Below, one piece after another: positions 14,569 to 28,896 of a DNA stretch of 53,731 bases. Source of the DNA: a virus; IMG/VR virus record IMGVR_UViG_3300037071_000543, positions 1 to 53,731 of that record, one strand, 5' to 3'. The position numbers and the translations under genes were made by a program. Positions within the stretch are counted from its first letter, which is position 1. Each line of letters starts with the position of its first letter. Under the pieces are notes generated by a model that worked only from the letters and a program-made list of their open reading frames with translations, made no database searches and was not told the origin of the DNA.

Positions 14569-14799
14569 TCAGACGCCGCTGCGATCGCGGGGTCGTAGCT
14601 CATGCGGTATCGCGGTCTTCGGGACAACGGCTGGCTTCACCAACTCCAGCACCTCCCGCATGGCCGCGATCTTGCCGCGCAAATACTGGCTTTCGCCATA
14701 GGCTTGGTCCGGCTGTTCGAGCCGGGTGCGGGCGGCCTCGATAATCTCCAGCGCCTTGGCCGCGACCTCGCGCCAAGTGTCGGTGTAGGCGTCGATCAT
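14569..14799 (-). CDS. Small helical protein next to the portal
   Basis: 76 residues; ATGA overlap with the portal stop fixes the start at 14799. A helix-rich sequence (EVAAKALEIIEAARTRLEQ, YLRGKIAAMREVLELVKPA) is followed by a basic tail. Similar small genes occur between portal and scaffold in other podoviruses. The role is unknown. Confidence 0.8.
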   Translation of the reverse strand: MIDAYTDTWREVAAKALEIIEAARTRLEQPDQAYGESQYLRGKIAAMREVLELVKPAVVPKTAIPHELRPRDRSGV

Positions 14800-17213
14800 G
14801 CTGCCTTTGCCTTCTTCTTCGGCTTGGAGCCGCCGCTGACATAGCCGCCAGAGGAGGTTGGAATCTCGCCGCGCGCCCGGGCCTCCGCCGCGTTCTTCTG
14901 CTCGATCGCCACCTCGGAGGCGAATATCCGCTCCTTCGACTGGTTGTCGAGTTCCTTGCCCGCCAGCATAGCCTCAAGCTCCTGCACGCTCATGTTGAGG
15001 TTGGCGGCCAGCCCGTTCATCTGCGCGTCGTAATGCTTATCAGCGACATACCGCTTGGTCGCATTGTCCTGATTCGATAGCTGGACCTGCAATTCCGCCC
15101 GCTTGATTTCCGCCTCCTTGGCCTCCCTCGCCTGATCGGCGGCCACCTTGGCCGCGACCGCCGCTTCGCTTTCGGCCTGCGCCGCCGCGAGCACCGCGTC
15201 GATTTCGTCGTCGGTCAGCATCACCTCTTCAGCCGGGATCATGTAGGCTTGGAAAATCTTCTTCAGCAGTTCGCGATTGCGCAGCATCGGCCCGAAGATC
15301 GGATGGCCGCCAAGCTGGATGGCGATCACCATGAGATTCTGCGCCTGCAATTCGCGCATCAGCAGCACGCTCGAACCGCGCGCGTCGACCTGATAGTCGC
15401 CCTTGATTTCCTCTTTCGGGTTGAACTGCATGTTCCAGTCGTAGGACCGCCGAATGTCCGGCGTGGTCACATCGTCATCGAAGTTCTTGACGAACGAGCG
15501 GAACACCACATTGGCGGAATTGTGCATCAGCGCGGTGCCGAGCGCCGTCTTCTCGACGTTCTGCGTGCCGACTTCGCCCTGCTGGCCCTGAATGGCCTGC
15601 GGCACCGACGACATCTTGTCGATGAACCGTTCGCAGAGGGCGATGATGTTTATCATGTCCTCCTGCCGGGCCTCGATATGGAATAGCTGAAACGGCGGGT
15701 TCTCCTTCTGGATGCCGTTCTTGGCCCGCCAGACCTTGCGGGGCTTCAGCTTGTAGTCGCCGTCTTCCGGCTCGATGTTCTGCGTGTCGATGATGACCTG
15801 CGGGCCGCTCGACACCCCGGCGTTGTCCATCATGGCGCGGAATGCGCCGTTCAACGCCGACTGCGGATCGCGCAAAAGCGCGGGCATGCCGTAGCCGAAA
15901 ATCGAGGCTTCGTCCTTGATGAGATTGTAGACCGAGTAGATGCACTCGCCGGAATCGTATGGGTAGACGGCGAATTTCAGGATTTCGCCCTGACAGAACC
16001 AGATGCAGACGTTGATTTCGATGAGTGGGTCGATTTCCTCGATCTGCCGCAGCGCCTCCCCGGCGATCGTCTGCACGGTTCCGTCGCGGCTGGAGGTGAG
16101 CATGTGCATGGCGAGCGCCTGCATGTCCTCGGGCTCCAGCGGCCCATAGTATTCGAACACATGGTAGAGGTCGCCCGTGACCTGCTGGGTGGCCGCCCGG
16201 ATGTTGCGAAGCTGTGCGAGGTAGGACGGCGCGGTGGTCGACGGGGCCAGCGTCAACAGTCGCCGGATCGCATCCTTGTCGAAGCCCTGTAGGTGCTGAA
16301 GCTGGCGGATCATGCGCCGGTTCATCAAGTGGCGCTCGAACGTGCCGTTGCCGTTCTCGATGTCGGTGGCGTCCATGTCGGGGAAGAATCCCCAAATGTC
16401 GACATCGCGGAATGCGGGTTGCTGGCCGGTCGAGATGTCGAGCCGGTACTCGCCTGACTCCTCATCGGTCTTCCAGCCGCGCCGCACCTTGTCGCCAGTG
16501 ACCGGACCCTTGGTCACCCCGGTGCCGAGCTTGACGCTGCAATCGATCTGCTTGCGCTTGATCGTCTGGTAGCGGCATTCGGTCAGTTGGTCGTCAATCT
16601 CCTTCTCCATGAGGTCCGACCGCTTGCGGGCCTCTTCCAGCTTGGCCGACAGCATGGCCGCCGCCGCCTTCGCCTCATCAGCCTCCGCCTGCTTTTCCTG
16701 CGCCTGCGCGGCGAGCGCCTGCTGCTCCTCCGGGGGAGCTTCCGCGCCGATTTCCTGCGCTTGCGCCGCCTGATCCTGCGCGGCCTTGGCCTGCTCGATC
16801 TTCTCGCGCGCCGCCGCTGCGGCGGCCTCCACCTTGTCCGACAGCGTGGGTACGGGCGTCGGCGAAATGCCCCAGTTCTTCTCGTCGGTGGGGAATAGCA
16901 AGTCCTTCAGCCGGGCCGCCATCGCGTCGGTCTTGTCCCGGGTGACGTTGATGAAAAGCTGCGACCGCTCCTCCTCGAACAGGACCTTGGCGGTCGCCAT
17001 GTCATAGCGCCCGTGATACTGCTCAAGATCTTCAATCCAGCGGGTTTCGAGCGATTGCCGCTTGCCGATGCGGGAATTGACCTCCGCCTCCAGCCGCCCG
17101 ACGATCGCCTTCAACTGGTCCTTCGACGGTGGCCGAATCTCCTGCTGGCTGCGAATGCTTTGCGGCAATTGCGGATTCGACGCCGGGGGGTTTTGAACCA
17201 TCATGTCGGCCAT
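14796..17213 (-). CDS. Portal protein
   Basis: 805 residues. The start MADMMVQNPP at 17213 lies 2 bases after the terminase nuclease stop and has CAGGA upstream. Longer in-frame starts would run into the terminase gene. Recognisable portal features are QRSQLFINVTRDKTDAMAAR-type sequence near residue 85, a long stem-like helix around 120-210, FRDVDIWGFFPDMDATD, PYDSGECIYSVYNLI, NALSRD-type helices, and a long Ala/Glu/Gln-rich C-terminal coiled coil (about 690-790) with a lysine tail. The dodecameric portal is the DNA entry and exit channel and the terminase dock. Length suits podovirus portals of the large type. Confidence 0.9.
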   Translation of the reverse strand: MADMMVQNPPASNPQLPQSIRSQQEIRPPSKDQLKAIVGRLEAEVNSRIGKRQSLETRWIEDLEQYHGRYDMATAKVLFEEERSQLFINVTRDKTDAMAARLKDLLFPTDEKNWGISPTPVPTLSDKVEAAAAAAREKIEQAKAAQDQAAQAQEIGAEAPPEEQQALAAQAQEKQAEADEAKAAAAMLSAKLEEARKRSDLMEKEIDDQLTECRYQTIKRKQIDCSVKLGTGVTKGPVTGDKVRRGWKTDEESGEYRLDISTGQQPAFRDVDIWGFFPDMDATDIENGNGTFERHLMNRRMIRQLQHLQGFDKDAIRRLLTLAPSTTAPSYLAQLRNIRAATQQVTGDLYHVFEYYGPLEPEDMQALAMHMLTSSRDGTVQTIAGEALRQIEEIDPLIEINVCIWFCQGEILKFAVYPYDSGECIYSVYNLIKDEASIFGYGMPALLRDPQSALNGAFRAMMDNAGVSSGPQVIIDTQNIEPEDGDYKLKPRKVWRAKNGIQKENPPFQLFHIEARQEDMINIIALCERFIDKMSSVPQAIQGQQGEVGTQNVEKTALGTALMHNSANVVFRSFVKNFDDDVTTPDIRRSYDWNMQFNPKEEIKGDYQVDARGSSVLLMRELQAQNLMVIAIQLGGHPIFGPMLRNRELLKKIFQAYMIPAEEVMLTDDEIDAVLAAAQAESEAAVAAKVAADQAREAKEAEIKRAELQVQLSNQDNATKRYVADKHYDAQMNGLAANLNMSVQELEAMLAGKELDNQSKERIFASEVAIEQKNAAEARARGEIPTSSGGYVSGGSKPKKKAKAA

Positions 17214-17215
17214 AA

Positions 17216-17965
17216 TCAGTATCCTGCCCTGTGATCGGCGACACCCATGCCAGCGCCGTGGCCGTTCGGCTTCATCGGCGGCAGCGTGGCCACCTTGTTC
17301 CACGTCAGCCACAGATACCGCATGTCATCCATGAGGTGATCGGCTTGGTGAGCGACGATCTTGCCCTTTTCGTCGCGCTGGTAGACCCGGTATTCCGCCT
17401 TGAAGTTCTGGAGCGTCGAGAAAATCTTAAGCTGCCCGAGCACCAAGGCCTGCCAGACCGCGACCAGCCCGGCCTCCAATTCGTTGTTGGCGTCGATCAG
17501 CTTGAGCCCGAGCGACACATATTCCGCCTTGAGTTGGGTGCCGTCCTTCTGGCTGGAGCCCTGCGATGCCGGGTCGATCGCGCCGCGAATCCACTCGCCG
17601 CGCGTCTTGATCGCCGCCGCATGGACGACCGGAAGCTGCTGGCCCTTATAGTGCTCCGAGTACAGGTAGATGATCCCGTCGACCGGGTTTTGCGCGCCCC
17701 ACAGCGCCGCCGTCCGGTTCCACCCTACATCCAGCGCATAGGCCTTCTTCCAGCCCCACGGGATCGCAAACGGCTTGACCTCGATGTCGCCGATCGGAAC
17801 CGGATAGATCACGCCAGCGCCCATCGACGGCTCGCCCCTCGATCGCGCATCCCGCAGGTACGGCGGGGTCGAGTCCAAGAGTTCGCGCTTGCCCTTCTCG
17901 TCCAAGTGGGGAACGTCATCCCACCCGGCCTGCACGATGTATCTGGACGGGGCGACTTCAGGCAT
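17216..17965 (-). CDS. Terminase large subunit, nuclease half (separate gene)
   Basis: 249 residues forming a complete RNase H-like terminase nuclease domain. The N-terminal RYIVQAGWDDVPHLDEKGKR and PPYLRDARSRGEPSMGAG are the stretch that normally follows the ATPase domain in one-piece terminases. The three acidic sites are present: YALDVGW (about residue 77), GAIDPASQG (about 128) and DHLMDDMRYL near the C-terminus. The ATP-binding half is absent here and lies at 27148-27936, with 17 other genes between. The protein presumably joins that half on the portal, whose gene follows 2 bases later. It is not a truncated remnant: its start and stop are intact. Confidence 0.92.
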   Translation of the reverse strand: MPEVAPSRYIVQAGWDDVPHLDEKGKRELLDSTPPYLRDARSRGEPSMGAGVIYPVPIGDIEVKPFAIPWGWKKAYALDVGWNRTAALWGAQNPVDGIIYLYSEHYKGQQLPVVHAAAIKTRGEWIRGAIDPASQGSSQKDGTQLKAEYVSLGLKLIDANNELEAGLVAVWQALVLGQLKIFSTLQNFKAEYRVYQRDEKGKIVAHQADHLMDDMRYLWLTWNKVATLPPMKPNGHGAGMGVADHRAGY

Positions 17966-17968
17966 CAG

Positions 17969-18184
17969 TCACTCCACCAACTTCGGAAGACTCATCCCGC
18001 CACCCGACCCTATGAGGTCGAGCAGCAGCAGGATCACGATGATGCACAGCACCACGATGGCCGCCACCTTCAAAATCCTCTGCGGCGGCTCCGGGATGAA
18101 TTGATCCACCACATACACGAATAGGTAGTAGAGAATGCCCATAATCAGCAGGTAAATGATGAGGTTGATAATCGCGCCTATCAT
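17969..18184 (-). CDS. Small two-helix membrane protein, holin candidate
   Basis: 71 residues. GAGAGG is spaced well before ATG 18184, and the stop lies 3 bases before the terminase nuclease start. Two membrane helices are evident, about residues 2-27 (LIIYLLIMGILYYLFVYVV) and 40-61 (VAAIVVLCIIVILLLLDLIG), separated by a short EPPQR loop. Size and topology fit class II holins, but similar two-helix proteins also occur with no lysis role. It lies between tail fibre and terminase, an unusual place for a holin. Confidence 0.7.
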   Translation of the reverse strand: MIGAIINLIIYLLIMGILYYLFVYVVDQFIPEPPQRILKVAAIVVLCIIVILLLLDLIGSGGGMSLPKLVE

Positions 18185-18195
18185 CACAGCACCTC

Positions 18196-21100
18196 TCAGT
18201 TGTTCATCCAGCGTGACATGACCAGCATCAGGCCCTCGCGCTGATCTTCCCTGCCGTCGACCACGCCGGGCCGGGAGGCGAACACGCCACCTGCCCGCAT
18301 GAACATCGGCTGGCCGGTCGGGAACACACGGGCCACCCATTCGACCTCGATGGAGTCCTCTGGCGCGGTGAGCGCCTGCATCTGCACCCCGGTGAGGGTG
18401 ACTTGGACGTGGTAGCGAATGAGGATGGTGACGGTGCCATACTCAGTTTGCAGCGCGTCGATCGTTGACGCGCCCTGCGGCGGATCGTTTTTGTACGGGT
18501 GGGTTGGGGACAGAAGGCCCTGTAGTCCCCACTTCCAAGCGAGGTAGCCGTCGATCTTGGGATAGACGCTCTCGGTCAGATCGGCGTTGTAGAGCACCAA
18601 CTCCGCGACATCGAAATCGCCGGTATCGGCCTGCGAATCGGGGTCGCGGCCACCCAGCCCGTATTCCCCTCCCATGCCGCCCGGCAGGCCGGAAGACGCC
18701 GCGACTGTTCCGTTCTTGCGAAATTCGGTGATGGTGCCGTCCGCGTTGCCGCCGTAAATCTTCCAGTCTTGGTTCGAGGTTGAACCAGTAAGGGCCGACA
18801 CGGTATCGGCGAAGGCGTCCTGCCCGTCCGGCGAAAAGCCGACATAGAGGTTTTTCGGGGCCATCGCGGCAAAGCAGTAGCCGTCATGCGGGAAGCCGGT
18901 CACGGGGTTCCACTTGCGCACCACGTAGGCCATCGACCATATCGCGTCGGTGAACTCGGCATCGCCGCGCAACCGGCTTTGCAGCGCGGTGAAGCGGACG
19001 ACCGGGCGGCCATTCATCGCGGTTGACCGATAGACCGGCAGCGGCGTGCCGACCATCACGGGATCGAGGCCGATCGCCTCATCCGTCAACGGCCATTCCG
19101 TGACCTCTTCGCCCTCCTCCAGATCGAGCATGGTGGCGTCGAGGTGGACCCTAAGCCCGCCGATCAGGCTGGGCCGCCACGGCAGGTAGCCGAATCGGAT
19201 GTTGTTGAAGGTGATGAACGACATCGAGCCCGGGCTCACCGTCATCGCGACCATGTAGTTGCCGGACGGGTAGACCTCCATGAAGCCCTGCGTGACCGCG
19301 TGGGTGATGCCCAAGCTCATCGTCAACTGGAAGCCGGTGATGAAGACGCGCCGGTTCTCGACCGCCTGCACGTCGCCGACCGAGGCGACCAAGAAGTTGC
19401 CGGTGATGACATCGGCGTCGACATCGACACTGACATCCGCGATCACGTCGCCACGGCTCATCGTCATCTGATTGCCGGTGACGAAGACCTCCCCGGCAGA
19501 AGGCGTCGAGACGGTGACCGTGCCCGATGCGATCGTCATCAAGTTAGTGGTCAGCAGGCCGAGCGTCTGCGGCCCGGTGACGAAATCGTCAAAGAAATTG
19601 CCGATCGAACCGCCGCCGATAATCCCGGTATCGGTCGAGGTGAGTGTGGCCCCGATCGCTCCCGAAGCCATCAAGGTGCCGTTCTTGAACACATACCAGT
19701 TCGATCCGACCGCCGCGAGGCGCAGCACATCGCCGTCGACATAGCCGCCATCGCCCGAGTTATAGATTTGCGCGATGGTGCCGAGCCCCGCCGTCTCCCG
19801 CCAGACTTCGACATGCCCGAAATTGATAGCCGTGGTCGCGCCGTGGAAGAGGCCGACGAACTGATTGTGGTCCGGCATCCGGCAGCACGCGCCGGGGCCG
19901 TAAATCAATTCATCTCCGATCGCGGTGAACTCGATGAAGTGGTCGAGCACGCCGGGCGATGGGTTGCACTTGTACGCGGAGCCGGACTCATCGACGGAGG
20001 TCGAGCGCAACTGGTTGCCGCTGACCGCCAGCCCGGCGAACCGGCCATCATGCACCCACGTTCCGCCGCTTGAGGCGATCGGCGTCGATTCGAGTGGGCC
20101 GTCCGCCCGGTCGAAATGGTCGTAAAACAGCGGATCGGCGAAGGTGGTAAGTGGCCCGGCCTCGAAATTCTCGGCGACCTCGCCGATGAATCCTCGACCG
20201 ACAATGCCGGTGCCGACATCGTTGAGCGCCGCGCCGATCGCCCCGCTCGACATCACCGCGCCGTCATTCTTGAGCGTCCAGTTGGAGCCCTCGCATTCAA
20301 GCCGCAGGAGGTCGCCGGTCGCCACCGCAGCCGCGCCCGAGGTGTAGAGGGTGACGAACGTGCCAGCCACCCGGCGAGCCACTACGACCTGCCCAGCGCC
20401 CGCGCCTTCGTTGCCGACATGGAAGCCGACGAAGTTGTTGCGATCGGCCAACCGGCAGCAGACAAACGATTGCGCGCCAACGTGCGAGATGGAGCCAGCC
20501 AGCCCGGCAGGCACGATGCACTCGACATAGTGGTCCGCCGATCCGACCGATGGCGTCTTGTAGGCGGAGCCGACGCTATCGGTGACCCCCGCGTACAGAA
20601 TGTTGTTGAACACCGACAGCCCGTGGACGATCGCGCTATCCCATACCCAGTTCCAACCGCCCGAGGCGGTCTTGCACGGCGCTTCCTCCAGCCAGCCGTC
20701 CGCCCGGTTGAAGGTGTCGGCGAAGGTGGTTTCCGTGCCAGCCGAGACCGAGACGTTGTTGAGGCTCATCGTCAGCAGGTTGGTGGTGAGTGTCGCGCCG
20801 CTCGCCGCGCCGCTGGTCAGCCCGGCCTCGAAATTGTCGAGGAAAGGATTCTGCACCGCCTGCCGGTTATGGATGCCGACCCGCGTGCCGATCCAGCCAG
20901 AGGCCGACAGCGCCATCGAGACGATCAGCACGGCATTCAGCCGGACCTCGATCTGATCCCCGGCAATCCGCGCCTCGATCGTGTCGCCCGAGGCAATGCC
21001 GTGATTGGTGTTGTAGATCGAGGTGAAGGTGCCGCCCGTCACCCGGTAGATTTGCAGGTTCGCGCCAGCGGTTCGCAGGCCGATGTACTTGTCCCGGCTT

Positions 21101-21984
21101 TCGCCGCGCAGCACGACGAAGCTGTTCGCGCTCGCATCCCGGGAGGTCCACGAAACCCAGTGGTTGACGTTGCCGATGTCGAAGTAGGTGAGCGACCCGC
21201 CGCTGGTGGTGTTGGCCGCCGCCCACTGGTTTCCAGAAATGCCGCCCGTGTTGACGCCGAGCCCGTCCGTCGCCCACGTCTGCCCGCCCGAGGTTGTCGG
21301 AGTGTTTTCGATCCAGTTGTCGGCGCGGTTGAAGTTGTCGGTGAAGGTGGCCGCGCCCTTGTCGATGCCGCCGACCGATGGCGAGGAGGTCGACATCGCC
21401 ACTTGCGAGCCGGTGGCGTTGACGCTGATTGCGCTGGCCAGCGACCCGAACTCAAGATCGTCGGCGAAGGTCGCCACCGTGGTGCGCGCCACCACCCCGG
21501 TATCCGTGGAGGTGAGCGTGCCGTTGCCGATCGCCCCGGAGGTGACGACCGTGCCGTTCTTGCGCAGTTGCCAGTTAGTGCCCGAGCACTCCAGCCGCAG
21601 CACGTCGCCAGCCGCGACAGCGCCGCCAGCCGAGGAATACAAGTTCGACAGCGAGCCGCCGACGCGCCGGTAGACCTCGATCACCGAGCCGTCATTGCGG
21701 ACTCCGACGAAGTTCGAACGATCGGCCAACCGGCAGCAGACAAACGGGCCGCTCGAAATCGAGGTGGTGGCGACCTTGTACTGGGCATAGTGGTCCGCCG
21801 TGCCCTGATTGACCGACTTGTACGCGGTCCCGGTCGAGTTCGAGGTGTTGCAGCGAAGCTGGTTGGTGTTGATCTGGAGCCCGGCAGCGACCAGCCCGTC
21901 ATGGGTCCAGTCGCCACCGCCCGACGCCGTGGCGGAGGCTTCCAGATTGGCATTGGCCCTATCGAAACTGTCGGTGAAGGGCAT
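18196..21984 (-). CDS. Large tail fibre/adhesin with tandem lectin-like modules
   Basis: 1262 residues. GGGAGGG precedes ATG 21984. The first 820 residues contain four tandem modules of about 200 residues, each with a D(S/T/H)F(D/N)RADG start, a VCCRLADRNNFVG-type core and a DVLRLECSGTNW repeat. They resemble concanavalin/LamG sugar-binding folds. Short linkers recur between modules (TGNQMTMS, TTNLLTMSLNN, TGFQLTMSLG). Around residue 960 a further lectin-like domain starts (GLRVHLDATMLDLEEG). It is probably a receptor-binding fibre. It lies between the two halves of the terminase, far from the other tail genes. Confidence 0.8.
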   Translation of the reverse strand: MPFTDSFDRANANLEASATASGGGDWTHDGLVAAGLQINTNQLRCNTSNSTGTAYKSVNQGTADHYAQYKVATTSISSGPFVCCRLADRSNFVGVRNDGSVIEVYRRVGGSLSNLYSSAGGAVAAGDVLRLECSGTNWQLRKNGTVVTSGAIGNGTLTSTDTGVVARTTVATFADDLEFGSLASAISVNATGSQVAMSTSSPSVGGIDKGAATFTDNFNRADNWIENTPTTSGGQTWATDGLGVNTGGISGNQWAAANTTSGGSLTYFDIGNVNHWVSWTSRDASANSFVVLRGESRDKYIGLRTAGANLQIYRVTGGTFTSIYNTNHGIASGDTIEARIAGDQIEVRLNAVLIVSMALSASGWIGTRVGIHNRQAVQNPFLDNFEAGLTSGAASGATLTTNLLTMSLNNVSVSAGTETTFADTFNRADGWLEEAPCKTASGGWNWVWDSAIVHGLSVFNNILYAGVTDSVGSAYKTPSVGSADHYVECIVPAGLAGSISHVGAQSFVCCRLADRNNFVGFHVGNEGAGAGQVVVARRVAGTFVTLYTSGAAAVATGDLLRLECEGSNWTLKNDGAVMSSGAIGAALNDVGTGIVGRGFIGEVAENFEAGPLTTFADPLFYDHFDRADGPLESTPIASSGGTWVHDGRFAGLAVSGNQLRSTSVDESGSAYKCNPSPGVLDHFIEFTAIGDELIYGPGACCRMPDHNQFVGLFHGATTAINFGHVEVWRETAGLGTIAQIYNSGDGGYVDGDVLRLAAVGSNWYVFKNGTLMASGAIGATLTSTDTGIIGGGSIGNFFDDFVTGPQTLGLLTTNLMTIASGTVTVSTPSAGEVFVTGNQMTMSRGDVIADVSVDVDADVITGNFLVASVGDVQAVENRRVFITGFQLTMSLGITHAVTQGFMEVYPSGNYMVAMTVSPGSMSFITFNNIRFGYLPWRPSLIGGLRVHLDATMLDLEEGEEVTEWPLTDEAIGLDPVMVGTPLPVYRSTAMNGRPVVRFTALQSRLRGDAEFTDAIWSMAYVVRKWNPVTGFPHDGYCFAAMAPKNLYVGFSPDGQDAFADTVSALTGSTSNQDWKIYGGNADGTITEFRKNGTVAASSGLPGGMGGEYGLGGRDPDSQADTGDFDVAELVLYNADLTESVYPKIDGYLAWKWGLQGLLSPTHPYKNDPPQGASTIDALQTEYGTVTILIRYHVQVTLTGVQMQALTAPEDSIEVEWVARVFPTGQPMFMRAGGVFASRPGVVDGREDQREGLMLVMSRWMNN

Positions 21985-22011
21985 GCGTCGAGCCCTCCCG
22001 GGAGCCTTCGA

Positions 22012-22449
22012 TCAGACGATCCTGATAATGGCGTTCGATGCGTCGGCGGCTGGGAAGATCACCGTGAAGTCGCCAGCCGACGATGACTTGTCGGACCCGA
22101 ACGACAGCACGACCACCGAAGGATCGGCCACGGGCGTGGTCACCGTGTCGTTGTAGATCATCGCGCCATTGGCGGTGATCGTCGCGGTCGACCATGTGGT
22201 GTCGGCGAAGTCGGCGATCGCCGTCGACCCGGAGAGCGTCACGGTCTGCCCGGTGAGCACGTTGCCGGTCGCCGTGTAGCCGGTGCCCGAGACCTCGCCG
22301 GATGCCGTGTAGGCCCCGGTGGTGCCGTCGAGCGTGGCCCCCGAGGTGTACAGCGCCATCTTGAAGGTGTTGCCGCCTGTCCCGAGATTGTGCATCCCGA
22401 GCATCACGTCGCGCTTGAAATTCTGGCAGATAGCTTGCGTGATCGCCAT
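22012..22449 (-). CDS. Conserved beta-rich phage protein, virion-associated family
   Basis: 145 residues. The sequence AICQNFKRDVMLGMHNL, then FKMALYTSGATL, then EVSGTGYTATGNVL, then FADTTWSTATITANGAMIYN and a closing DASNAIIRI is a pattern shared by a small protein found in many tailed phages. It is often encoded beside fibre genes. Its exact role is not established; a capsid or fibre accessory role is commonly suspected. The next gene upstream stops 2 bases before its start. Confidence 0.75.
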   Translation of the reverse strand: MAITQAICQNFKRDVMLGMHNLGTGGNTFKMALYTSGATLDGTTGAYTASGEVSGTGYTATGNVLTGQTVTLSGSTAIADFADTTWSTATITANGAMIYNDTVTTPVADPSVVVLSFGSDKSSSAGDFTVIFPAADASNAIIRIV

Positions 22450-22450
22450 C

Positions 22451-22714
22451 TCACTTCCCCTTTTCGAGCATCAGGTGAGTCTGATAGGCGCGGTCGGATG
22501 CTATCGCCCGCTTGATGCCGTCGAGCACGACGACCTTCATCTGCTCGCGGAAGGCATGGGCTTGGTCGCGGATCGGTTGCGGCGCGGTGTCCGCCACCCG
22601 GATCAGCTTGTCAACGATGCGCTCCGCGAAGAACTCGGGGGGATGTCCACCGTTCGAGGTGGTGACGACTTGGACGGTGCCGACAGCCATCGGCTGTTCG
22701 TCGGTCCAACTCAT
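22451..22714 (-). CDS. Conserved small phage protein
   Basis: 87 residues, start overlapping the preceding stop (ATGA at 22714). The pattern HPPEFFAERIVDKLIRVADTA, then PIRDQAHAFREQMKVVVLDGIKRAI matches a short helical protein that accompanies the 145-residue beta-rich protein in many phage genomes. The function is unknown. Confidence 0.8.
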   Translation of the reverse strand: MSWTDEQPMAVGTVQVVTTSNGGHPPEFFAERIVDKLIRVADTAPQPIRDQAHAFREQMKVVVLDGIKRAIASDRAYQTHLMLEKGK

Positions 22715-23268
22715 AGGATCAGCGCCTTCATGGCCGCGATGCGGTTTTCGAGGTCAGCCTGCTCTTTCGCGATCTTGTGCTCCAGCGCGTTGAGCTTGGA
22801 CTCACGATCCTCCAGCGTCCAGCGCACCTGCGCCGCCAGCTTCTCCTGCTCGACCACCGTCCGCTCGCGCTGCTCGATTTCGTGGCGCTTGGCCGCGAGG
22901 GTGGCGAAGGCTTCCGCGAGTTCGCCGTCCTTCTTGGCGTACCCGGCCAGCATCTCGGAGTCCTGTTCGTCGGCCAGCTTGATCTTGCGGGTGAGGTCCG
23001 CCTCCCGCTTGTCCAGCCCCTCGCGGGCGAACGCGATGTCGGCCTCATGCTTGTCGAGTTCTTCCGTCTTGGCGGTGAGCACCTGCTCGCGCTCATCCAG
23101 CTTTTTGGCCAGCCCGTCGAGCTTCTGCTGCGCCGCGATCATGCTCGCCATTGCGTTCTGGATTTCGACAATACGGGCTTCCGTCGCTTGCGGATCGGAG
23201 ACGATAGCGAGCAGCTTGTCGAGCGAATCGGTGGCCTTGACTGCTTCCCCCCGGGTGCCGCTCATCAT
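22711..23268 (-). CDS. Long coiled-coil protein
   Basis: 185 residues; two adjacent ATG codons (23268, 23265). From residue 35 to the end it is one continuous amphipathic helix with heptads (LAKKLDEREQVLTAKTEEL, RHEIEQRERTVVEQEKLA). This resembles assembly chaperones or fibre-associated coiled coils encoded next to fibre genes. No family can be named. Confidence 0.75.
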   Translation of the reverse strand: MMSGTRGEAVKATDSLDKLLAIVSDPQATEARIVEIQNAMASMIAAQQKLDGLAKKLDEREQVLTAKTEELDKHEADIAFAREGLDKREADLTRKIKLADEQDSEMLAGYAKKDGELAEAFATLAAKRHEIEQRERTVVEQEKLAAQVRWTLEDRESKLNALEHKIAKEQADLENRIAAMKALIL

Positions 23269-23269
23269 G

Positions 23270-23575
23270 TCAGAGGCTCCCGATGACGGCGATCTTGAAG
23301 CTCCTGCCGGGTGGCACCCCGGTGAACCGGGTTTCGCCCGCAGCCATGCGCTGCGCCGTGGTCACTGCGGTGGGATTGACGCCCCAAGCCACGCAGCAGG
23401 CTTCCTGCGCATGAACCATCAGGAAGGCGGTGCGCTCATTGAAGGCGTTGGACTGGGTGGAAGCGCCGGTCACGACGACCGTTTGCTCCGCGTTGGCGGG
23501 CTCGACCCCAGCCGCGACCCCGTAGCCGCCAAGATCGCGGGCGAGGTTGGCGTACTCCGTCACGAACAGCGGCAT
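23270..23575 (-). CDS. Small beta-rich protein of unknown function
   Basis: 101 residues. GGGAGG lies 6 bases before ATG 23575. A beta-rich sequence (TVVVTGASTQSNAF, ETRFTGVPPGRSFKIAVIG) suggests a virion component. It is the first gene of the fibre cluster after a 190-base gap that could hold its promoter. Confidence 0.75.
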   Translation of the reverse strand: MPLFVTEYANLARDLGGYGVAAGVEPANAEQTVVVTGASTQSNAFNERTAFLMVHAQEACCVAWGVNPTAVTTAQRMAAGETRFTGVPPGRSFKIAVIGSL

Positions 23576-23766
23576 GCCCGACCTCCCTCATCGATGTCTG
23601 TGAGGGCGGAGAATATTCCTCATATCGGTTGAAAACACAATCGCTTGTGTTTTTGGCCTCCGGGATCGATTCCAGCCCGACAATTACCCGGACGTTACCG
23701 CTGGGGTGGCACCTATGCGATCCTTGCATGGCGGGGCGTGTCAGCCATCCAGCAAGGGCGCATAGC
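23576..23766. other. Intergenic region before the fibre cluster, with palindrome
   Basis: 191 bases with no gene of its own. AAAACACAA (23632-23640) and TTGTGTTTT (23645-23653) form a 9-bp palindromic stem around TCGC, suitable for a repressor site. On the minus strand TTGTGT at the end of this palindrome and AATATT 17 bases later could be a weak sigma-70 promoter for the fibre cluster. Promoter is tentative. Confidence 0.4.
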
Positions 23767-24069
23767 TCAGAATTTGAAGTCGACCCCCTTGCTGCGGTCC
23801 TTCAGCCGGACGGCGAGGTCGCCGATCGCCCCGTTGAGCGCGCCGATCATCTTGGTCACGTCATCCTCGGTGTACTCGTACAGCGAGCGGTTGCTCAGGT
23901 TGCCCATGTTCTTGATGCCACCGAGCGTCCGCGTCATGCGGAATGCGCCAATGCGCAGGAACTTCTCGCGCTTGGTCTCGGTCCTGCCGGGATGCAACAC
24001 CACGGGCGGCTCTGGCGGTGGGCTCTCATGCTGGGGAGGGACTTCCTCCGTGATCTTCCTGCGTGGCAT
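23767..24069 (-). CDS. Small phage protein of unknown function
   Basis: 100 residues, start MPRRKITEEV because GGGAGG lies 6 bases before ATG 24069. A Pro-rich first 40 residues are followed by an ordered helical part (LRIGAFRMTRTLGGIKNMGN, EDDVTKMIGALNGAIGDLAVRL). Similar short proteins occur in phage structural-accessory clusters. No function is known. Confidence 0.75.
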   Translation of the reverse strand: MPRRKITEEVPPQHESPPPEPPVVLHPGRTETKREKFLRIGAFRMTRTLGGIKNMGNLSNRSLYEYTEDDVTKMIGALNGAIGDLAVRLKDRSKGVDFKF

Positions 24070-24082
24070 GTCATCCTCCCTG

Positions 24083-24256
24083 TCAGTGCGCCTGTCGGCG
24101 CTTGTGAAGCGCGTCTTCCTTGCCCCGCGCATAGGCCCTTCGAAGGGCGTCGGCGATCTTCTCGATGCCGTCTTCAGCGTCATCGGTCAGGTTGTCGTAG
24201 ATGTCCTTCGCCTCGATCGCATTCCAAGCCTCCCGGATTTCCTTCTTCATGCCCAT
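24083..24256 (-). CDS. Small charged helical protein
   Basis: 57 residues. ATG at 24256 overlaps the preceding stop (TGATG). The whole sequence is helical and charged (MKKEIREAWNAIEAKDIYDN, KIADALRRAYARGKEDAL). The tight coupling to both neighbours and uniform codon use support it as a gene. The function is unknown. Confidence 0.7.
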   Translation of the reverse strand: MGMKKEIREAWNAIEAKDIYDNLTDDAEDGIEKIADALRRAYARGKEDALHKRRQAH

Positions 24257-24486
24257 CAGATCACCAAGCGCAAATCGAGTTCCTGCCCGGTGACCGAGCG
24301 CGGCGGATCGTGATGCAGCAGTTCGCGGTCGAACTCCCCGAGCCGGTCCTCATCGTGCGTCTGCGGCGAAATCAGCGGAATCAGGCAGGTGACCGGCGTT
24401 CCTGATTCGGTCTCGCCTTCCCACACCCGGGCGCTGGCCCCGTTGACCATAACCACCTTGTCCGTCGAGGCGATCGTGATCTTCAT
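24256..24486 (-). CDS. Conserved small phage protein
   Basis: 76 residues starting MKITIASTDKVVMVNGASARVWEG-type: strand, turn, strand, then TPVTCLIPLISPQT. This beta-sheet pattern is common in small phage proteins of no known role. Start and stop overlap neighbouring genes. Confidence 0.75.
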   Translation of the reverse strand: MKITIASTDKVVMVNGASARVWEGETESGTPVTCLIPLISPQTHDEDRLGEFDRELLHHDPPRSVTGQELDLRLVI

Positions 24487-25052
24487 TGCTCGGGCTGCTC
24501 CTGCTCGTCCGCCTGCCGGTAGCGATCCTCACCCTCCAGAAACATCAGGTAGGCATGCGCCCGGGTGACCACCTGTTCGAGCGAGCCATGCGGATCGGCC
24601 TCCTGCGCCATGCGGAGTGCCATCTCGCGGCGGAAGTCGGCGCGATCGCGCTGCCGCCGCTCCTCCTCACCGGCTTGACTGAACACCCCGACATTGGCCC
24701 GGTTGACAAATTGTTGCTTGGCCGCGTCCGCGTAGCTGCCCGGGCCGCCCTTGCCCTCGACGGAGAGCGGAAGAGGCGGCGGCATGCGCAGGAAGTCGCC
24801 TTCAGCGTGCGCCGTGGCGTCCATGCTAGGGTCTGTCGGCTGCGGGCCGGTCACCCCGTAGGGCTCATCGAAGTCGCTATCCTCCATGTCGGGAGGCGGC
24901 GGAGGCGGCGGGTCCATCGGAGCCGTCAGGTCCACCTGCGTTTTGGTAGGCTCGATATACGGGATCGGCTTTGAGGTAAGCGCCTCATCCTCATCGAACT
25001 CGGGCAGCTTGTAGCCCGGCATTCCCGTCACTGGGTCCTTCACGAATGGCAT
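24483..25052 (-). CDS. Proline-rich protein of unknown function
   Basis: 189 residues. ATG 25052 is preferred over 25058 because GGGAGG then has normal spacing. The first 85 residues are Pro-rich and acidic with a run of prolines. The last 90 are helical and charged (EEERRQRDRADFRREMALRM). A CGTA(C)TAC-type site lies 22 bases upstream of the start and may control this gene and those following it. Confidence 0.75.
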   Translation of the reverse strand: MPFVKDPVTGMPGYKLPEFDEDEALTSKPIPYIEPTKTQVDLTAPMDPPPPPPPDMEDSDFDEPYGVTGPQPTDPSMDATAHAEGDFLRMPPPLPLSVEGKGGPGSYADAAKQQFVNRANVGVFSQAGEEERRQRDRADFRREMALRMAQEADPHGSLEQVVTRAHAYLMFLEGEDRYRQADEQEQPEQ

Positions 25053-25073
25053 GGTCATCCTCCCTTGGAATTT

Positions 25074-25082
25074 CGTACTACA
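25074..25082 (-). promoter_or_regulatory. Single CGTA-S-TACG-type operator
   Basis: CGTACTACA on the plus strand, TGTAGTACG on the minus: one end base differs from the perfect palindrome. It lies between the Tad2-like gene stop and the next gene start. TTGAAT 17 bases before TAGTAC on the minus strand gives a possible but weak promoter. Confidence 0.5.
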
Positions 25083-25118
25083 CCCGAGTGCGCGATTATT
25101 CAATCCGTGATCCCGGCA

Positions 25119-25385
25119 CTATGAAATCCTGAATGGCCCCTCATCCGCCAACTGCATCACCGGGACGATCGACCAATCCTCCGCCAGCATGTCCGTCTGG
25201 CTGGCCAGCCACGGCACCAAATCGCCCTGCACGGTTCGCATGAAGATGTACGGCAAGGTCATCTTCGAGTTCTCATCCGGGACTTGCAGCGCGAGGTACA
25301 TCCCCTTGCCGTTCCACCCCTTGCGGCACACCAAACCGCCATCCCGCAGCCGATCGAGCGCCCAGCCAAAGTCGGTCTTTTCCAT
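25119..25385 (-). CDS. tad2: Tad2-like (DUF2829) Thoeris anti-defence protein
   Basis: 88 residues. ATG 25385 has GAGGAGG 6 bases upstream. The sequence follows the DUF2829/Tad2 pattern from end to end: FGWALDRLRDGGLVCRKGWNGKGM, then LPYIFMRT, then VPWLASQTDMLAEDWSIV (positions about 5-28, 47-54 and 60-77). Tad2 proteins are established sponges that bind the cyclic-ADPR-type signal of Thoeris immunity and so protect the phage. Family membership is firm from these motifs; ligand and activity here are inferred. It lies in a run of small genes within the split terminase interval. Confidence 0.85.
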   Translation of the reverse strand: MEKTDFGWALDRLRDGGLVCRKGWNGKGMYLALQVPDENSKMTLPYIFMRTVQGDLVPWLASQTDMLAEDWSIVPVMQLADEGPFRIS

Positions 25386-25396
25386 GTCCGTCCTCC

Positions 25397-25630
25397 TCAA
25401 TTCAGCCGCGCGCCCGGCAGCGCCGGGACTCCCGCGAGCGTTCCACCTGCCAGCACAAGCTCGACCCCGGCGTCGGTCAGCTTGAAGGTAAGCCCGTAAT
25501 CCTCATCATCGACCGGCACGCAGAGCCCGGCCCGGTAGGCCGCGCGCCATTGTTCCGCCCGTTCCTCCGAGCATTCCTCATCCGCGATGAACTCCGCGAG
25601 CACACGCTCGACCAGCAAAGCCTCATCCAT
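25397..25630 (-). CDS. Small acidic protein
   Basis: 77 residues. The helical N-terminal part is acidic (VLAEFIADEECSEERAEQWR), and the C-terminal part looks like a short sheet (YGLTFKLTDAGVELVLAG). It overlaps the preceding gene by 8 bases. It may be an inhibitor-type protein given the Tad2-like neighbour, but nothing specific was recognised. Confidence 0.7.
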   Translation of the reverse strand: MDEALLVERVLAEFIADEECSEERAEQWRAAYRAGLCVPVDDEDYGLTFKLTDAGVELVLAGGTLAGVPALPGARLN

Positions 25631-25862
25631 CGGTTTCCTCCTCGAACCGGGCCAGCGCCCGGCGCAGCGCGTCCGCCTTGATCTGCGTCTCGACGCTGAT
25701 AAGCCCGCCGTTGCCGCCCTTCCACTGTGTGCCGATCATGATCCCATTGTCATCGAACGAGATGGATTCGACCAGTTCCTTGGCCGCGTGCCATAGCTGG
25801 CCGACCGACTCCGCCCACAGCGACACCTCATCCGGGTTCATGCCCTCGGGCGTCAGCGTCAT
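25623..25862 (-). CDS. Small protein of unknown function
   Basis: 79 residues starting MTLTPEGMNPDEVSLWAESV; the start is set by an ATGA overlap with the previous gene. A helix, a beta hairpin (ISFDDNGIMIGTQW) and a final helix are predicted. No family recognised. Confidence 0.75.
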   Translation of the reverse strand: MTLTPEGMNPDEVSLWAESVGQLWHAAKELVESISFDDNGIMIGTQWKGGNGGLISVETQIKADALRRALARFEEETDG

Positions 25863-26311
25863 CGCAATTCCTCGAACGCAGCCCAGTCGAACACGAAGCA
25901 AGGCTCCATATCGCCCGGCGATCCGTTGCGATCCTTCCGCCCGGCCCAAATGACACGATCGCTATGCAGGTTCATCCGGGTCCAGCGGATGACGCCATCA
26001 TCGAAGCGAACGGCCAGACGGGACGGAGTGCCGCTGCACTGCTTGAGCGCCCAGCACGATCGCACCTTGAGCACCGACAACCAATACCCGTCACCGTCGC
26101 GATAGCGCCAGTTGCGGCCTTTAGCCTCAAGGTAGAAATCGACTGGCGGGTGATCGCCGCAGCCACGCCTGAGCATGGCGAAGTCAGGCCCGTAGGACAG
26201 GGCGTTGATCTTCTCGAAATCGTAGCCCCAAGCCTCCGCGCACTCCTTGGCGATCGCCCGCTCGACGGCCTTGGTTGCGTCGTTTTCGAATAGCGGACGC
26301 GCCGTCATCAT
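25859..26311 (-). CDS. PD-(D/E)XK-like fold candidate
   Basis: 150 residues. Two ATG codons (26311, 26308) overlap the preceding stop. The sequence GPDFAMLRRG, then VDFYLEAKGRNW has an Asp, spacing and an E-x-K that match the core of PD-(D/E)XK nucleases. A following strand-rich part contains LAVRFDDGVIRWTR. It could be a small phage nuclease or a DNA-binding relative. The call rests on this motif only. Confidence 0.5.
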   Translation of the reverse strand: MMTARPLFENDATKAVERAIAKECAEAWGYDFEKINALSYGPDFAMLRRGCGDHPPVDFYLEAKGRNWRYRDGDGYWLSVLKVRSCWALKQCSGTPSRLAVRFDDGVIRWTRMNLHSDRVIWAGRKDRNGSPGDMEPCFVFDWAAFEELR

Positions 26312-26628
26312 GTGTCAGCCAATTCGAAGGCTGCAACGATTTGCGCGACGTTGACCGACGCCGTGGTGCGGCTGGTTGGCGCAAACAGGAGCCGTCCCGG
26401 GCTGTCCCGCAGCCAGACATCCTCCCCGGTCTTCATGGTGACATCGATCCACAGCGAACCATCAGCCGCCAGATGAACCGCTTCGATACACTCGATCGCG
26501 AGCGTGTGCCCGGTGATAAGCAAAAGGCCGAACGACCAGCAGTCATCCATCATGCGAGGGATAAACCAAGCAGGAAGCAGCCTCTTCGCATCGATCCCCT
26601 TTGTGAGATATTCCTCACTCACATCCAT
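26308..26628 (-). CDS. Small beta-rich protein of unknown function
   Basis: 106 residues starting MDVSEEYLTKGIDAKRLL. A GGGGG run with normal spacing precedes ATG 26628. The middle contains strands (SFGLLLITGHTLAIECIEAV, LWIDVTMKTGEDVWL). An end motif SRTTASVNVAQIVAAFELAD suggests a domain with a final helix. No family was recognised. Confidence 0.7.
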   Translation of the reverse strand: MDVSEEYLTKGIDAKRLLPAWFIPRMMDDCWSFGLLLITGHTLAIECIEAVHLAADGSLWIDVTMKTGEDVWLRDSPGRLLFAPTSRTTASVNVAQIVAAFELADT

Positions 26629-26645
26629 CACATCCCCCTTTGCCG

Positions 26646-26960
26646 TTATTGCGGACGGCCACTGCCGTTGAGATTCACCACCTTCTTGGCGGCCTCCATA
26701 GCGGCCTCCGCCTCGGCCACCTCCTTGTCGTAAAGGCGCTTTTCGACGCGCCATGCCAGTTCGCCCTTCAGCGCGGCGATGTCCTGCTCCAAGCAGACCC
26801 TCCGGTGCTCAAGCTCCAGCTTGGCCAGTTCCCGCTTCAGGGAGCTATCCGGCGTGTCTTCGATCTGTTCCTTGGCTTCCCAACCGCTACCGAACTCTTC
26901 CCCCCATTGCCGGTCGATGTATTTGTCCGCTGCCCGGATCATATCTGCCAGTACGCTCAT
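26646..26960 (-). CDS. Helical charged protein
   Basis: 104 residues; ATG 26960 overlaps the preceding stop and GAGGAGAGGA lies upstream. The sequence is helical with a coiled coil (LKRELAKLELEHRRVCLEQD, EKRLYDKEVAEAEAAMEAAK). The function is unknown. Confidence 0.75.
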   Translation of the reverse strand: MSVLADMIRAADKYIDRQWGEEFGSGWEAKEQIEDTPDSSLKRELAKLELEHRRVCLEQDIAALKGELAWRVEKRLYDKEVAEAEAAMEAAKKVVNLNGSGRPQ

Positions 26961-27148
26961 TGTTCCTCTCCTCTTTTTTCTAGTATCGCAATCTGCTTCT
27001 TAAGACCATCGACCAGCTTGCGGGCCTCCTCCGGTATGATCTTGAAGGTGATAGACACCTCATCGTGCTTTCCTGATAGTGTCACCATGATAACATCGAC
27101 GAAGATGCTTGCCTTAATATTGATGCCGCTATCCGGTCCTCTTGCCAT
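26957..27148 (-). CDS. Small protein directly after the terminase ATPase gene
   Basis: 63 residues, MARGPDSGINIKASIFVDVI; its ATG shares a base with the terminase stop (TGATG at 27150-27146). Strand-rich first half, helical second half (EEARKLVDGLKKQIAILEK). It is not a continuation of the terminase: no nuclease motif is present. The function is unknown. Confidence 0.75.
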   Translation of the reverse strand: MARGPDSGINIKASIFVDVIMVTLSGKHDEVSITFKIIPEEARKLVDGLKKQIAILEKRGEEQ

Positions 27149-27936
27149 CACATCATCCCTAGTTGTGGTCGATCGCTTGCCATTTGGAATTGCTGCACGG
27201 TCTCGGTGATCCCCTGAAGCGGGGTGAAGGTGAGGAGCATGATGCCGTTGGTCGTCATCAGGCGAATGATGCACTCGCCGTAGACATCCATCGGGCATTC
27301 CTCATCCGCCCAAATCACATGCTGGGACGTGCCCTCGAACGAGCCTCGACCTTGCTCGTAGGATTTCATACCCAAGGTCGACCAGCCGCCCGACACATGC
27401 CGGACCTTCACCAAGTCGGTGAGGTCTTCGACGCCGCGCTTCCACGTCACCCTGCCTATCAGATTGCCCGGGACCATGCCGGTTCCGGCGAGTTGCTTGC
27501 GAGTGCCATCGTAGGCCACAGGGCCGAGCAGGGCGGCCTGCACGATGTCGCGGGTGGATTCGTTCTTCTTGCCGCACGCCCACGCCCTGACAGGCCCGTC
27601 AAAGCGCCTGCCGTCCCACCAACCGGGATAGAGCCCGGTGAGGTGCGCGGTCACCTCGAACGCCCCGGTGATCGTCTTGCCTACACGATTAGCTGCCAAA
27701 AAGCAGCGTTCCCGGTAACTGGCCCCAGCCTCGAAGAACTCGACATGCTTCGGGTAGTGACGCCGGGCATAGACAAGCACGGTGCCGTCGAGGTCGAGCC
27801 GGTCTTCATCCGGGAAGAGTTCGAAGAACTGGCGCTGCTGGAGCCGTCGCGACATGGTGGCCGCGAGCGCGGCGTAGTGCTGCCGGGTTTGCAGCGGGAG
27901 GAGGTCCATGTCCTCCAGAGGCAGGAGGTCCAGCAT
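27148..27936 (-). CDS. Terminase large subunit, ATPase half (separate gene)
   Basis: 262 residues forming a complete packaging ATPase domain. The P-loop is AANRVGKT (about residues 81-88), the Walker B strand with catalytic Glu is VIWADEE, and the coupling motif is LLTFTPLQG near the C-terminus. It ends QMASDRPQLGMM, just where one-piece terminases continue into the nuclease domain. That domain is encoded at 17216-17965. No intein or intron splice motif was seen at the break. It would power DNA packaging at the portal and must work with the nuclease half in trans. It follows the terminase small subunit region, the usual place for this gene. Confidence 0.92.
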   Translation of the reverse strand: MLDLLPLEDMDLLPLQTRQHYAALAATMSRRLQQRQFFELFPDEDRLDLDGTVLVYARRHYPKHVEFFEAGASYRERCFLAANRVGKTITGAFEVTAHLTGLYPGWWDGRRFDGPVRAWACGKKNESTRDIVQAALLGPVAYDGTRKQLAGTGMVPGNLIGRVTWKRGVEDLTDLVKVRHVSGGWSTLGMKSYEQGRGSFEGTSQHVIWADEECPMDVYGECIIRLMTTNGIMLLTFTPLQGITETVQQFQMASDRPQLGMM

Positions 27937-27937
27937 G

Positions 27938-28207
27938 TCACTGGACGGTCATCGGGACGAAGCTGACCATCTCTCCGAGTTCGCCCTTTTGGGCCGCGTC
28001 GTGGACTACCCGCTGCATCGCGTTGCGAAAGCCGTCATCGCCGAAGGACCGCGCCACCCCGAGCGCCACGATGAAGTCGACCGGCACCGGCTCGTTCGCT
28101 TCGTGGTCGGGAATCGTGATGAAGCACTGCCCTTTGCGGATTACCATCTTGATGTCGCCCGGCTCTGGTTCGGGCGGGTGGTCGTATTTAGTCACCGTCG
28201 CTTCCAT
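27938..28207 (-). CDS. Small protein between terminase subunit genes
   Basis: 89 residues. GAGAGACG lies before ATG 28207 and the stop is 1 base before the terminase start. A beta strand set (DIKMVIRKGQCFITIPD) precedes helices (VDFIVALGVARSFGDDGFRN). The function is unknown; its place suggests a DNA-packaging accessory. Confidence 0.7.
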   Translation of the reverse strand: MEATVTKYDHPPEPEPGDIKMVIRKGQCFITIPDHEANEPVPVDFIVALGVARSFGDDGFRNAMQRVVHDAAQKGELGEMVSFVPMTVQ

Positions 28208-28458: not shown

Positions 28459-28896
28459 TCAATGCTTCACGCCAGCCTTGATCGATCGCACCTCCGCGTG
28501 GATCGCCGCCATTTCGAAGCGGATTTCGTCATCCGTCATCGAACTGTAATTGTGGTTGAAGGTCGAGACGTTGACGCTCCGATCGATGAACAGCCCAAAC
28601 AGTTTGGCCTTGCACGCCCCGGCTTGGACGGCGGCTGACACCTGCCCGAGCTTGAGCGCGTAGGCTCGATCCTCATCGAACTGCGCGGCCATCGAATCGA
28701 TCGTCACCTCGACCCGCGCCAGCGCCTTGCCTTGGAGTTCGGCGATCCGCGCGACGACATTGCCTTTTCTAGCCAGCCTCGACGCATGTTGCATGGATGG
28801 TCGATACCCTGCCAGCGCATATGCCTCATCCAATGTCTTGCCGGTGACGCGGAACTGACAGAACGATTCCTGTCTGGCATTTTTGAGAATTGGCAT
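28459..28896 (-). CDS. Terminase small subunit
   Basis: 145 residues, starting MPILKNARQESFCQF with GAGG 7 bases before ATG 28896. The first half has the terminase small-subunit HTH pattern: RQESFCQFRVTGKTLDEAYALAGY, then HASRLARKGNVVARIAELQ. The remainder is helical with a central helix for oligomerisation (ALKLGQVSAAVQAGACKAKLF). It should bind packaging sites and load the large subunit. The repeat region at 29.1-29.3 kb upstream is a candidate binding site. Confidence 0.8.
   Translation of the reverse strand: MPILKNARQESFCQFRVTGKTLDEAYALAGYRPSMQHASRLARKGNVVARIAELQGKALARVEVTIDSMAAQFDEDRAYALKLGQVSAAVQAGACKAKLFGLFIDRSVNVSTFNHNYSSMTDDEIRFEMAAIHAEVRSIKAGVKH

What the first reader, a model, noticed from the sequence alone, without database searches (positions are those of the whole stretch)
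17216..27936. Terminase large subunit encoded as two domain-sized genes 9.2 kb apart
The ATPase half (27148-27936) has Walker A, Walker B with Glu, and the coupling TFTP motif. The nuclease half (17216-17965) has all three catalytic acids. Each has its own start and stop. Together they make about 511 residues, a normal length. The break falls at the inter-domain linker. Between them are 17 genes, including a 1262-residue fibre. Introns and inteins in terminases are known, but no splice motifs are visible here. The packaging motor must be built from two polypeptides in trans.
Basis: partly seen in the sequence, partly recalled or inferred. Interest (0 to 1): 0.9.

Follow-up and report, generated by a model that had tools for sequence, protein, structure and literature searches.

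The report
Phage packaging motor gene in two pieces
The gene for the motor that stuffs DNA into this virus is split into two separate genes lying 9 thousand bases apart; many related viruses have the same cut, so the motor is probably assembled from two proteins rather than one.

Summary
TerL-N (27148-27936) and TerL-C (17216-17965) are complementary halves of a P22-like (Terminase_6) large terminase: TerS, TerL-N, 17 genes, TerL-C, portal. It is not an assembly artefact. The same cut is present in eight other IMG/VR contigs of the window's close clade with 2.9-12.2 kb gaps (a ninth contig is identical to the window), in 95 non-redundant split loci overall, in named bacterial genomes, and in a closed plasmid-prophage of cultured Endozoicomonas.

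Gaps run from overlapping ATGA junctions to 12.2 kb. Fused and split forms interleave on the tree (14 changes, at least 7 forced), so fission recurred at one point. Catalytic residues are intact, both halves are under purifying selection, and nothing is missing at the cut. No intron, junction intein or second terminase was found.

One correction: structural mapping puts the cut between the ATPase core and its lid, so the lid travels with the nuclease.

The gap holds a conserved structural/fibre module plus a variable cassette, here including a Tad2-like anti-Thoeris gene.

Consecutive-gene split terminases are already reported (Arthrobacter cluster AY). The different cut point, its recurrence and the kilobase separation make this a new variant. 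Function in trans is inferred.

The parts
28459..28896 (-). Terminase small subunit (TerS), start at the ATG homologous to relatives
   Evidence: phrog_51 1.4e-9; 41-54% identity to TerS of six relatives over nearly their full length
27938..28207 (-). 89-aa gene between TerS and TerL-N, conserved in 7 genomes of the clade, function unknown
27148..27936 (-). TerL-N: ATPase core of the large terminase (Walker A, Walker B + Glu, coupling motif)
   Evidence: AF2 pLDDT 93.7; Z 15.8 to P74-26 ATPase residues 10-208
23767..27148 (-). Variable cassette of small accessory genes next to TerL-N
   Evidence: gene calls and comparison of nine genomes
25859..26311 (-). Putative PDDEXK nuclease gene within the cassette
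   Evidence: PF24579 1.3e-13
25119..25385 (-). Tad2-like (Thoeris anti-defence) gene within the cassette
   Evidence: PF11195 1.4e-25
23270..23575 (-). 101-aa gene, the most widely shared gap gene (17 loci); the only gap gene in L177 and L181
22012..23268 (-). Three conserved genes of 185, 87 and 145 aa next to the fibre gene (145-aa protein: phrog_644 8.9e-21, unknown function)
18196..21984 (-). 1262-aa fibre-like virion protein gene
   Evidence: phrog_2804 virion structural protein 2e-13; related genes in the same place in relatives
17969..18184 (-). 71-aa hydrophobic (probable membrane) protein gene directly upstream of TerL-C, conserved in 8 genomes
   Evidence: hydrophobicity read from the sequence
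17216..17965 (-). TerL-C: lid/linker subdomain (residues 1-46) plus RNase H-fold nuclease (47-231)
   Evidence: AF2 pLDDT 83.3; Z 24.9 to P22 nuclease 289-482
14796..17213 (-). Portal protein gene, directly downstream of TerL-C
   Evidence: phrog_332 head-tail adaptor 2.8e-30, portal families phrog_156 and phrog_1216 weaker; same position in relatives

Best explanation
A headful-type large terminase gene was broken by gene fission at the boundary between the ATPase core and the lid. Each half then kept or gained its own stop or start, at first as overlapping, translationally coupled genes. In the window's lineage, virion genes and accessory genes later accumulated between the halves. The phage makes two proteins, an ATPase core and a lid-nuclease, that assemble non-covalently at the portal and package DNA as a two-chain motor. 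Shown: two complete complementary ORFs, conservation of the split across many genomes, intact motifs, purifying selection, and no intron, junction intein or second terminase found. Inferred: non-covalent assembly and packaging, and the order of events.
For: Same cut in 95 non-redundant split loci against 77 fused loci. 31 of the split pairs measured have overlapping halves, mostly a 4-bp ATGA/GTGA-type overlap, some 1 bp. No residues missing: coupling motif to WDDVPH measures median 41 aa fused, 44 aa as N tail plus C head in split forms. Walker A/B, coupling and nuclease residues are conserved over fused and split members together. dN/dS about 0.09-0.21 for both halves in the closer pairs of the window clade. 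N- and C-half distances correlate (r = 0.81) in lineages with gaps over 1 kb. TerL-C is followed by the portal in most relatives with room. TerL-N is predicted to fold alone as a complete core with only its last 8 residues disordered. A closed replicon of a cultured bacterium shows TerS, N-half, C-half. No Rfam family in the window nor, apart from one tRNA, in seven related loci with gaps or adjacent halves.
Against: No protein, RNA or biochemical data. From memory, the isolated T4 gp17 domains keep ATPase or nuclease activity but not packaging, and the lid/linker couples the domains (review PMC7617512), so a cut there could be expected to impair the motor. The window record is linear, so a second terminase outside it cannot be strictly excluded.
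Confidence: 0.85

Rival explanations
1. The halves are rejoined by trans-splicing of RNA (split group I/II intron) or of protein (split intein).
For: Inteins do occur in this family: L057, L178 and L192 carry intein-like inserts of about 280-320 aa exactly in the Walker A motif, and L189 has one elsewhere in the ATPase domain. Campylobacter phage IBB_35 TerL has an intein and an intron (PMC3322345); Mic1 TerL has two inteins (PMC7156551).
Against: Each half has its own start and stop. N tails are about 19-46 aa counted from the coupling motif, too short for an intein fragment. C halves begin with a start codon, often overlapping the N stop by 4 bp, leaving no room for intron or intein pieces. 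No Rfam intron matches. All inteins seen lie at other sites.
Confidence: 0.03
2. The halves do not form a stable two-chain motor subunit: the ATPase core alone translocates DNA, and the lid-nuclease acts separately, for example only for initial and headful cutting.
For: Separate genes allow different dosage and timing. phi29's packaging ATPase works without an active terminase nuclease (general knowledge).
Against: The C half carries the lid, which is coupled to the ATP cycle in solved terminases (PMC7617512). The lid segment stays conserved in split forms (W15, P19, R38-R41, G44, P46 invariant).
Confidence: 0.1
3. The separation in the window is an assembly error, or one half is a decaying gene replaced by a terminase outside the record.
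For: The record is linear and may be incomplete.
Against: Independent contigs 62-84% identical show the same layout with different gaps. Prophages in named genomes and a closed replicon show the split. dN/dS well below 1. Contigs of 60-64 kb in the clade show just one N and one C match each.
Confidence: 0.02

Closest known systems
Split large terminase of Arthrobacter cluster AY phages (BillyTP gp2/gp3, PP978841; PMC11920828)
   Same: ATPase and nuclease parts of the large terminase encoded by two separate genes.
   Different: Consecutive, slightly overlapping genes; no detectable sequence similarity to this family; by sequence the cut seems to lie after the lid (359-aa ATPase half, 198-aa nuclease half), whereas here it lies before the lid; no insert.
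P22-like large terminases (Terminase_6; P22 gp2; fused relatives EBPR podovirus 1, Chlorobiaceae phage CV-1-33)
   Same: Homologous core, lid and nuclease, same motifs, same order TerS-TerL-portal.
   Different: One polypeptide there, two genes here.
Adjacent split terminases within the same family (MW202785.1 ct2G2228; Endozoicomonas gorgoniicola plasmid-prophage NZ_CP103299.1)
   Same: Same cut point, both halves complete, TerS upstream and portal downstream.
   Different: Halves adjacent (10-130 bp apart) rather than 9.2 kb apart; annotated without comment, the C half as hypothetical protein in the plasmid.
Phage Aeh1 NrdA split by the MobE homing endonuclease (recalled from memory, not tested here)
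   Same: An essential enzyme encoded in two pieces that assemble.
   Different: There a homing endonuclease marks the break; here none was recognised in the window, and HNH in only 1 of 75 gap proteins of relatives.

Membership tests
P22-like (Terminase_6) large terminase | P-loop ATPase core with Walker A, Walker B + Glu and coupling motif | tested here: met
   PF03237 6e-15; motifs invariant or nearly so; Z 15.8 to P74-26 ATPase
P22-like (Terminase_6) large terminase | RNase H-fold nuclease with conserved acids | tested here: met
   PF17289 over cut-off; Z 24.9 to P22 nuclease; D79 and D131 invariant, D209 and D213 at 90% or more, over 60 relatives
P22-like (Terminase_6) large terminase | Gene next to TerS and portal | tested here: met
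   TerS upstream of the N half, portal directly downstream of the C half
P22-like (Terminase_6) large terminase | Single polypeptide | tested here: not met
   Two ORFs separated by 9,182 bp, each with its own start and stop; homologous to the family in both halves, so called a split member
Split terminase of Arthrobacter cluster AY type | Consecutive ATPase and nuclease genes | tested here: not met
   17 genes lie between the halves
Split terminase of Arthrobacter cluster AY type | Same cut point (after the lid) | tested here: not met
   BillyTP halves are 359 and 198 aa, the lid-like segment being read by eye at the end of the first; here the lid is on the C half
Intein or intron at the break | Splicing domain or ribozyme at the junction | tested here: not met
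   No Rfam match; tails too short; overlapping genes in relatives
Homing-endonuclease-fractured gene | Homing endonuclease gene in the break | tested here: inconclusive
   None recognised in the window's gap; a putative PDDEXK nuclease is there; HNH in 1 of 75 gap proteins of relatives; an ancestral one could have been lost
Two-chain packaging motor | Physical association and packaging activity of N and C | not testable with these tools
   Needs protein experiments; complex prediction not available here

The most novel reading that the evidence does not exclude
Large terminases of this family work as true two-chain motors in which the ATPase core and its own lid are on different polypeptides. 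Fission at this point is tolerated so well that it recurred many times and turned the cut into a locus where phages accumulate virion and counter-defence genes.
Probability: 0.55. Interest if true: 0.75.

Novelty: new variant of a known kind. Interest (0 to 1): 0.62.

Why it matters
Models of viral DNA packaging lean on mechanical coupling of ATPase core, lid and nuclease within one chain. Natural motors cut between core and lid would be a ready-made test of whether that covalent link is needed. The C half can be annotated as hypothetical protein, so terminase-based phage classification may miss or mis-tree these viruses. The cut also appears to serve as a site where accessory genes, including Tad2-like anti-defence genes, collect.

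Tried and rejected
Assembly artefact: rejected by independent contigs, named bacterial genomes and a closed replicon.

Intron or intein at the break: not found. Inteins in the family sit in Walker A or elsewhere in the ATPase domain.

Second terminase in the record: none for PF03237, PF17289 or PF03354 beyond the two halves.

Homing endonuclease in the gap as a general cause: 1 HNH in 75 gap proteins.

TerS frameshift: suspected from ORF calls, rejected; TerS is intact at 28459-28896.

DNA-level relatives among annotated phages: none by megablast. Single-query scan of bacterial genomes: none; the profile scan found 40.

Literature: ten searches; only cluster AY found as a direct precedent. 'Split terminase' gives no paper. 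The library lacks most subscription journals, so absence is weak evidence.

Collapsing weak tree branches in my own script gave the same count at every threshold and was not trusted; the treekit counts are used.

The structure of the two halves together could not be predicted: single chains only.

Full report
Observation. The two ORFs are on the minus strand at the stated coordinates. TerL-N (27148-27936, 262 aa) matches Terminase_6N at 6e-15 and the half-length family phrog_31467 at 1.6e-80. TerL-C (17216-17965, 249 aa) matches Terminase_6C at 8e-5, just over the curated cut-off, and phrog_5653 (199 positions, terminase large subunit) at 2e-16. A profile of TerL-C relatives finds the P22 nuclease structure 4dkw at 1e-30. 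In transcription order the locus is TerS (28459-28896), an 89-aa gene, TerL-N, 17 genes, TerL-C, portal. The record is the whole 53,731-bp IMG/VR contig, linear, and holds no other terminase that I could find.

The junctions are tight. The TerL-N stop overlaps the start of the next gene (TGATG), and the TerL-C ATG follows the stop of the upstream gene by a few bases behind a GGTGGAG ribosome-binding-like sequence. Both halves therefore sit inside what looks like a continuous operon; no promoter or transcript data were examined.

Not an artefact. Scans of IMG/VR with each half and coordinate checks on whole records show both halves on one contig in G001 (100% identical to the window over 13.2 kb; possibly not independent), G002 (gap 11.5 kb), G003 (7.5), G007 (2.9), G008 (8.9), G010 (4.7), G012 (11.2), G014 (8.8) and G015 (12.2 kb). 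Apart from G001 their C halves are 62-84% identical to the window's. Profiles of both halves led to about 240 loci. After removing duplicates and short matches, 95 are split and 77 fused. These numbers are not a prevalence estimate, because the queries were mostly split forms and result lists were capped. Split forms occur in named bacterial genomes, among them Azospirillum sp. B506 (2.7 kb gap), Azospirillum agricola (1.2 kb), Sphingopyxis flava (1.8 kb), Novosphingobium (1.3 kb), Chromohalobacter canadensis (1.1 kb), and with overlapping halves in Vibrio galatheae, Kushneria aurantia and Neptunomonas marina. In the closed 54,159-bp plasmid-prophage of cultured Endozoicomonas gorgoniicola PS125 the order is TerS, 'terminase family protein', 'hypothetical protein' (the C half), then a 679-aa gene in the portal position.

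A graded series at one point. Of the split pairs measured, 31 overlap, most by 4 bp (stop and start sharing ATGA or GTGA), several by 1 bp; others are separated by tens to hundreds of bases, and 26 loci by more than 1 kb. The cut falls between the helix after the coupling motif TFTPLxG...F(LP) and S(K/R)xxVQAxWDDVPHL. The stretch from TFTP to WDDVPH is 41 aa (median) in fused forms and 44 aa as N tail plus C head in split forms, so essentially nothing was lost. On a maximum-likelihood tree of 172 concatenated sequences, fused/split needs 14 changes, at least 7 forced by well-supported branches, against 56.5 for shuffled labels. The window lies in a 48-row all-split clade (SH-aLRT 92) and in a 9-row clade with gaps all over 1 kb (96). 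The tree is a quick search and unrooted, so fission and re-fusion cannot be separated; that known TerLs elsewhere are single chains (general knowledge) favours repeated fission.

Where the cut falls in the fold. The TerL-N model (pLDDT 93.7, pTM 0.89) is a complete core with only its last 8 residues disordered. It aligns to P74-26 ATPase residues 10-208 (Z 15.8, rmsd 3.2, 171 aligned), D6E 11-189 and Sf6 4-162. The TerL-C model (pLDDT 83.3) aligns from its residue 47 to P22 nuclease 289-482 (Z 24.9, rmsd 2.2, 183 aligned) and from residue 49 to D6E 233-416. D6E residues 190-232, the segment between core and nuclease (lid/linker), thus correspond to residues 1-48 of TerL-C, where the model has two helices (23-32, 35-43); Foldseek's alignment to full-length D6E spans 228 columns, more than the nuclease alone, though at high rmsd. 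So the lid travels with the nuclease half. In a review the lid/linker coordinates the ATP cycle with core-nuclease movement (PMC7617512), which makes this an unexpected place to cut.

What lies in the gap. In the window's close clade the gap has two parts: next to TerL-C a conserved module (101, 185, 87 and 145 aa, a fibre-like gene, a 71-aa hydrophobic protein) and next to TerL-N a variable set of small genes. In the window the latter includes a Tad2-like anti-Thoeris gene (1.4e-25) and a putative PDDEXK nuclease (1.3e-13). The 101-aa family occurs in 17 loci and is the only gap gene in L177 and L181, so accretion around it is a plausible history. Elsewhere the gaps hold Tad2-like genes (L059, L101), a HipA gene next to a helix-turn-helix gene on the opposite strand (L149), a resolvase, tail-fibre genes and other small genes; one HNH endonuclease among 75 proteins. 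The cut therefore behaves like an insertion site for accessory genes, not like the scar of one recognisable mobile element.

Selection and co-inheritance. In the closest informative pairs dN/dS is about 0.09-0.21 for both halves (Nei-Gojobori, dS often near 1, so approximate; more distant pairs are unreliable because of codon bias). Distances of the two halves correlate at r = 0.81 in lineages with gaps over 1 kb, 0.57 in fused forms and only 0.17 in adjacent split forms; the last value is unexplained and may reflect saturation or exchange at the cut.

Mechanism. Best explanation: fission in the core-lid connection, first as coupled genes, then separation by insertions; the proteins meet again at the portal as core plus lid-nuclease. 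Shown: gene structure, recurrence, completeness, conservation. Inferred: association, stoichiometry, packaging and the order of events. RNA or protein trans-splicing is disfavoured because overlapping junctions leave no room for intron or intein pieces; inteins exist in the family, but in the Walker A motif of L057, L178 and L192 and elsewhere in the ATPase domain of L189.

Known or new. Cluster AY Arthrobacter phages have ATPase and nuclease domains in two consecutive genes (PMC11920828). Their proteins show no detectable similarity to this family and are, by sequence, cut after the lid. I found no report of a cut before the lid, of recurrent splitting, or of halves separated by kilobases, but the literature library is partial. 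I rate this a new variant of a known kind.

Noticed in passing
window 25119-25385 (-); L059:8834-9424; L101:2471-2779: Tad2-like (anti-Thoeris) genes recur inside the TerL gap of different phages, which suggests the gap is a place to look for counter-defence genes.
   Followed up: partly
L057, L178, L192 (N-half ORFs): Intein-like inserts of about 280-320 aa exactly in the Walker A motif (NRVGK/C...HHN/T) of TerL-N halves that are also split; L189 (fused TerL) has an insert of about 320 aa elsewhere in the ATPase domain.
   Followed up: partly
L149:9279-11722: Three opposite-strand genes, including HipA and a helix-turn-helix partner (toxin-antitoxin-like), lie between the two TerL halves.
   Followed up: partly
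window 12540-13538 (-): N4-gp56-family major capsid protein (9e-92) combined with a P22-like terminase; the Endozoicomonas plasmid-prophage has the same pairing.
   Followed up: no
window 23270-23575 (-): 101-aa protein without any Pfam, PHROG or NCBIfam match that is the commonest gene in the TerL gap across relatives.
   Followed up: partly
39 loci with adjacent or overlapping halves: Distances of the two halves correlate weakly (r = 0.17) in adjacent-split lineages compared with 0.57 in fused and 0.81 in far-split ones; possible domain exchange at the cut, or saturation.
   Followed up: no
L131 (777-bp gap), L111 (2,492-bp gap): Gaps between the TerL halves in which my simple gene caller found little or no coding sequence; no Rfam match either.
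   Followed up: partly
L243:5998-6720 (NZ_CP103299.1 28772-29494): The C half of a split terminase is annotated only as hypothetical protein in a finished genome.
   Followed up: yes
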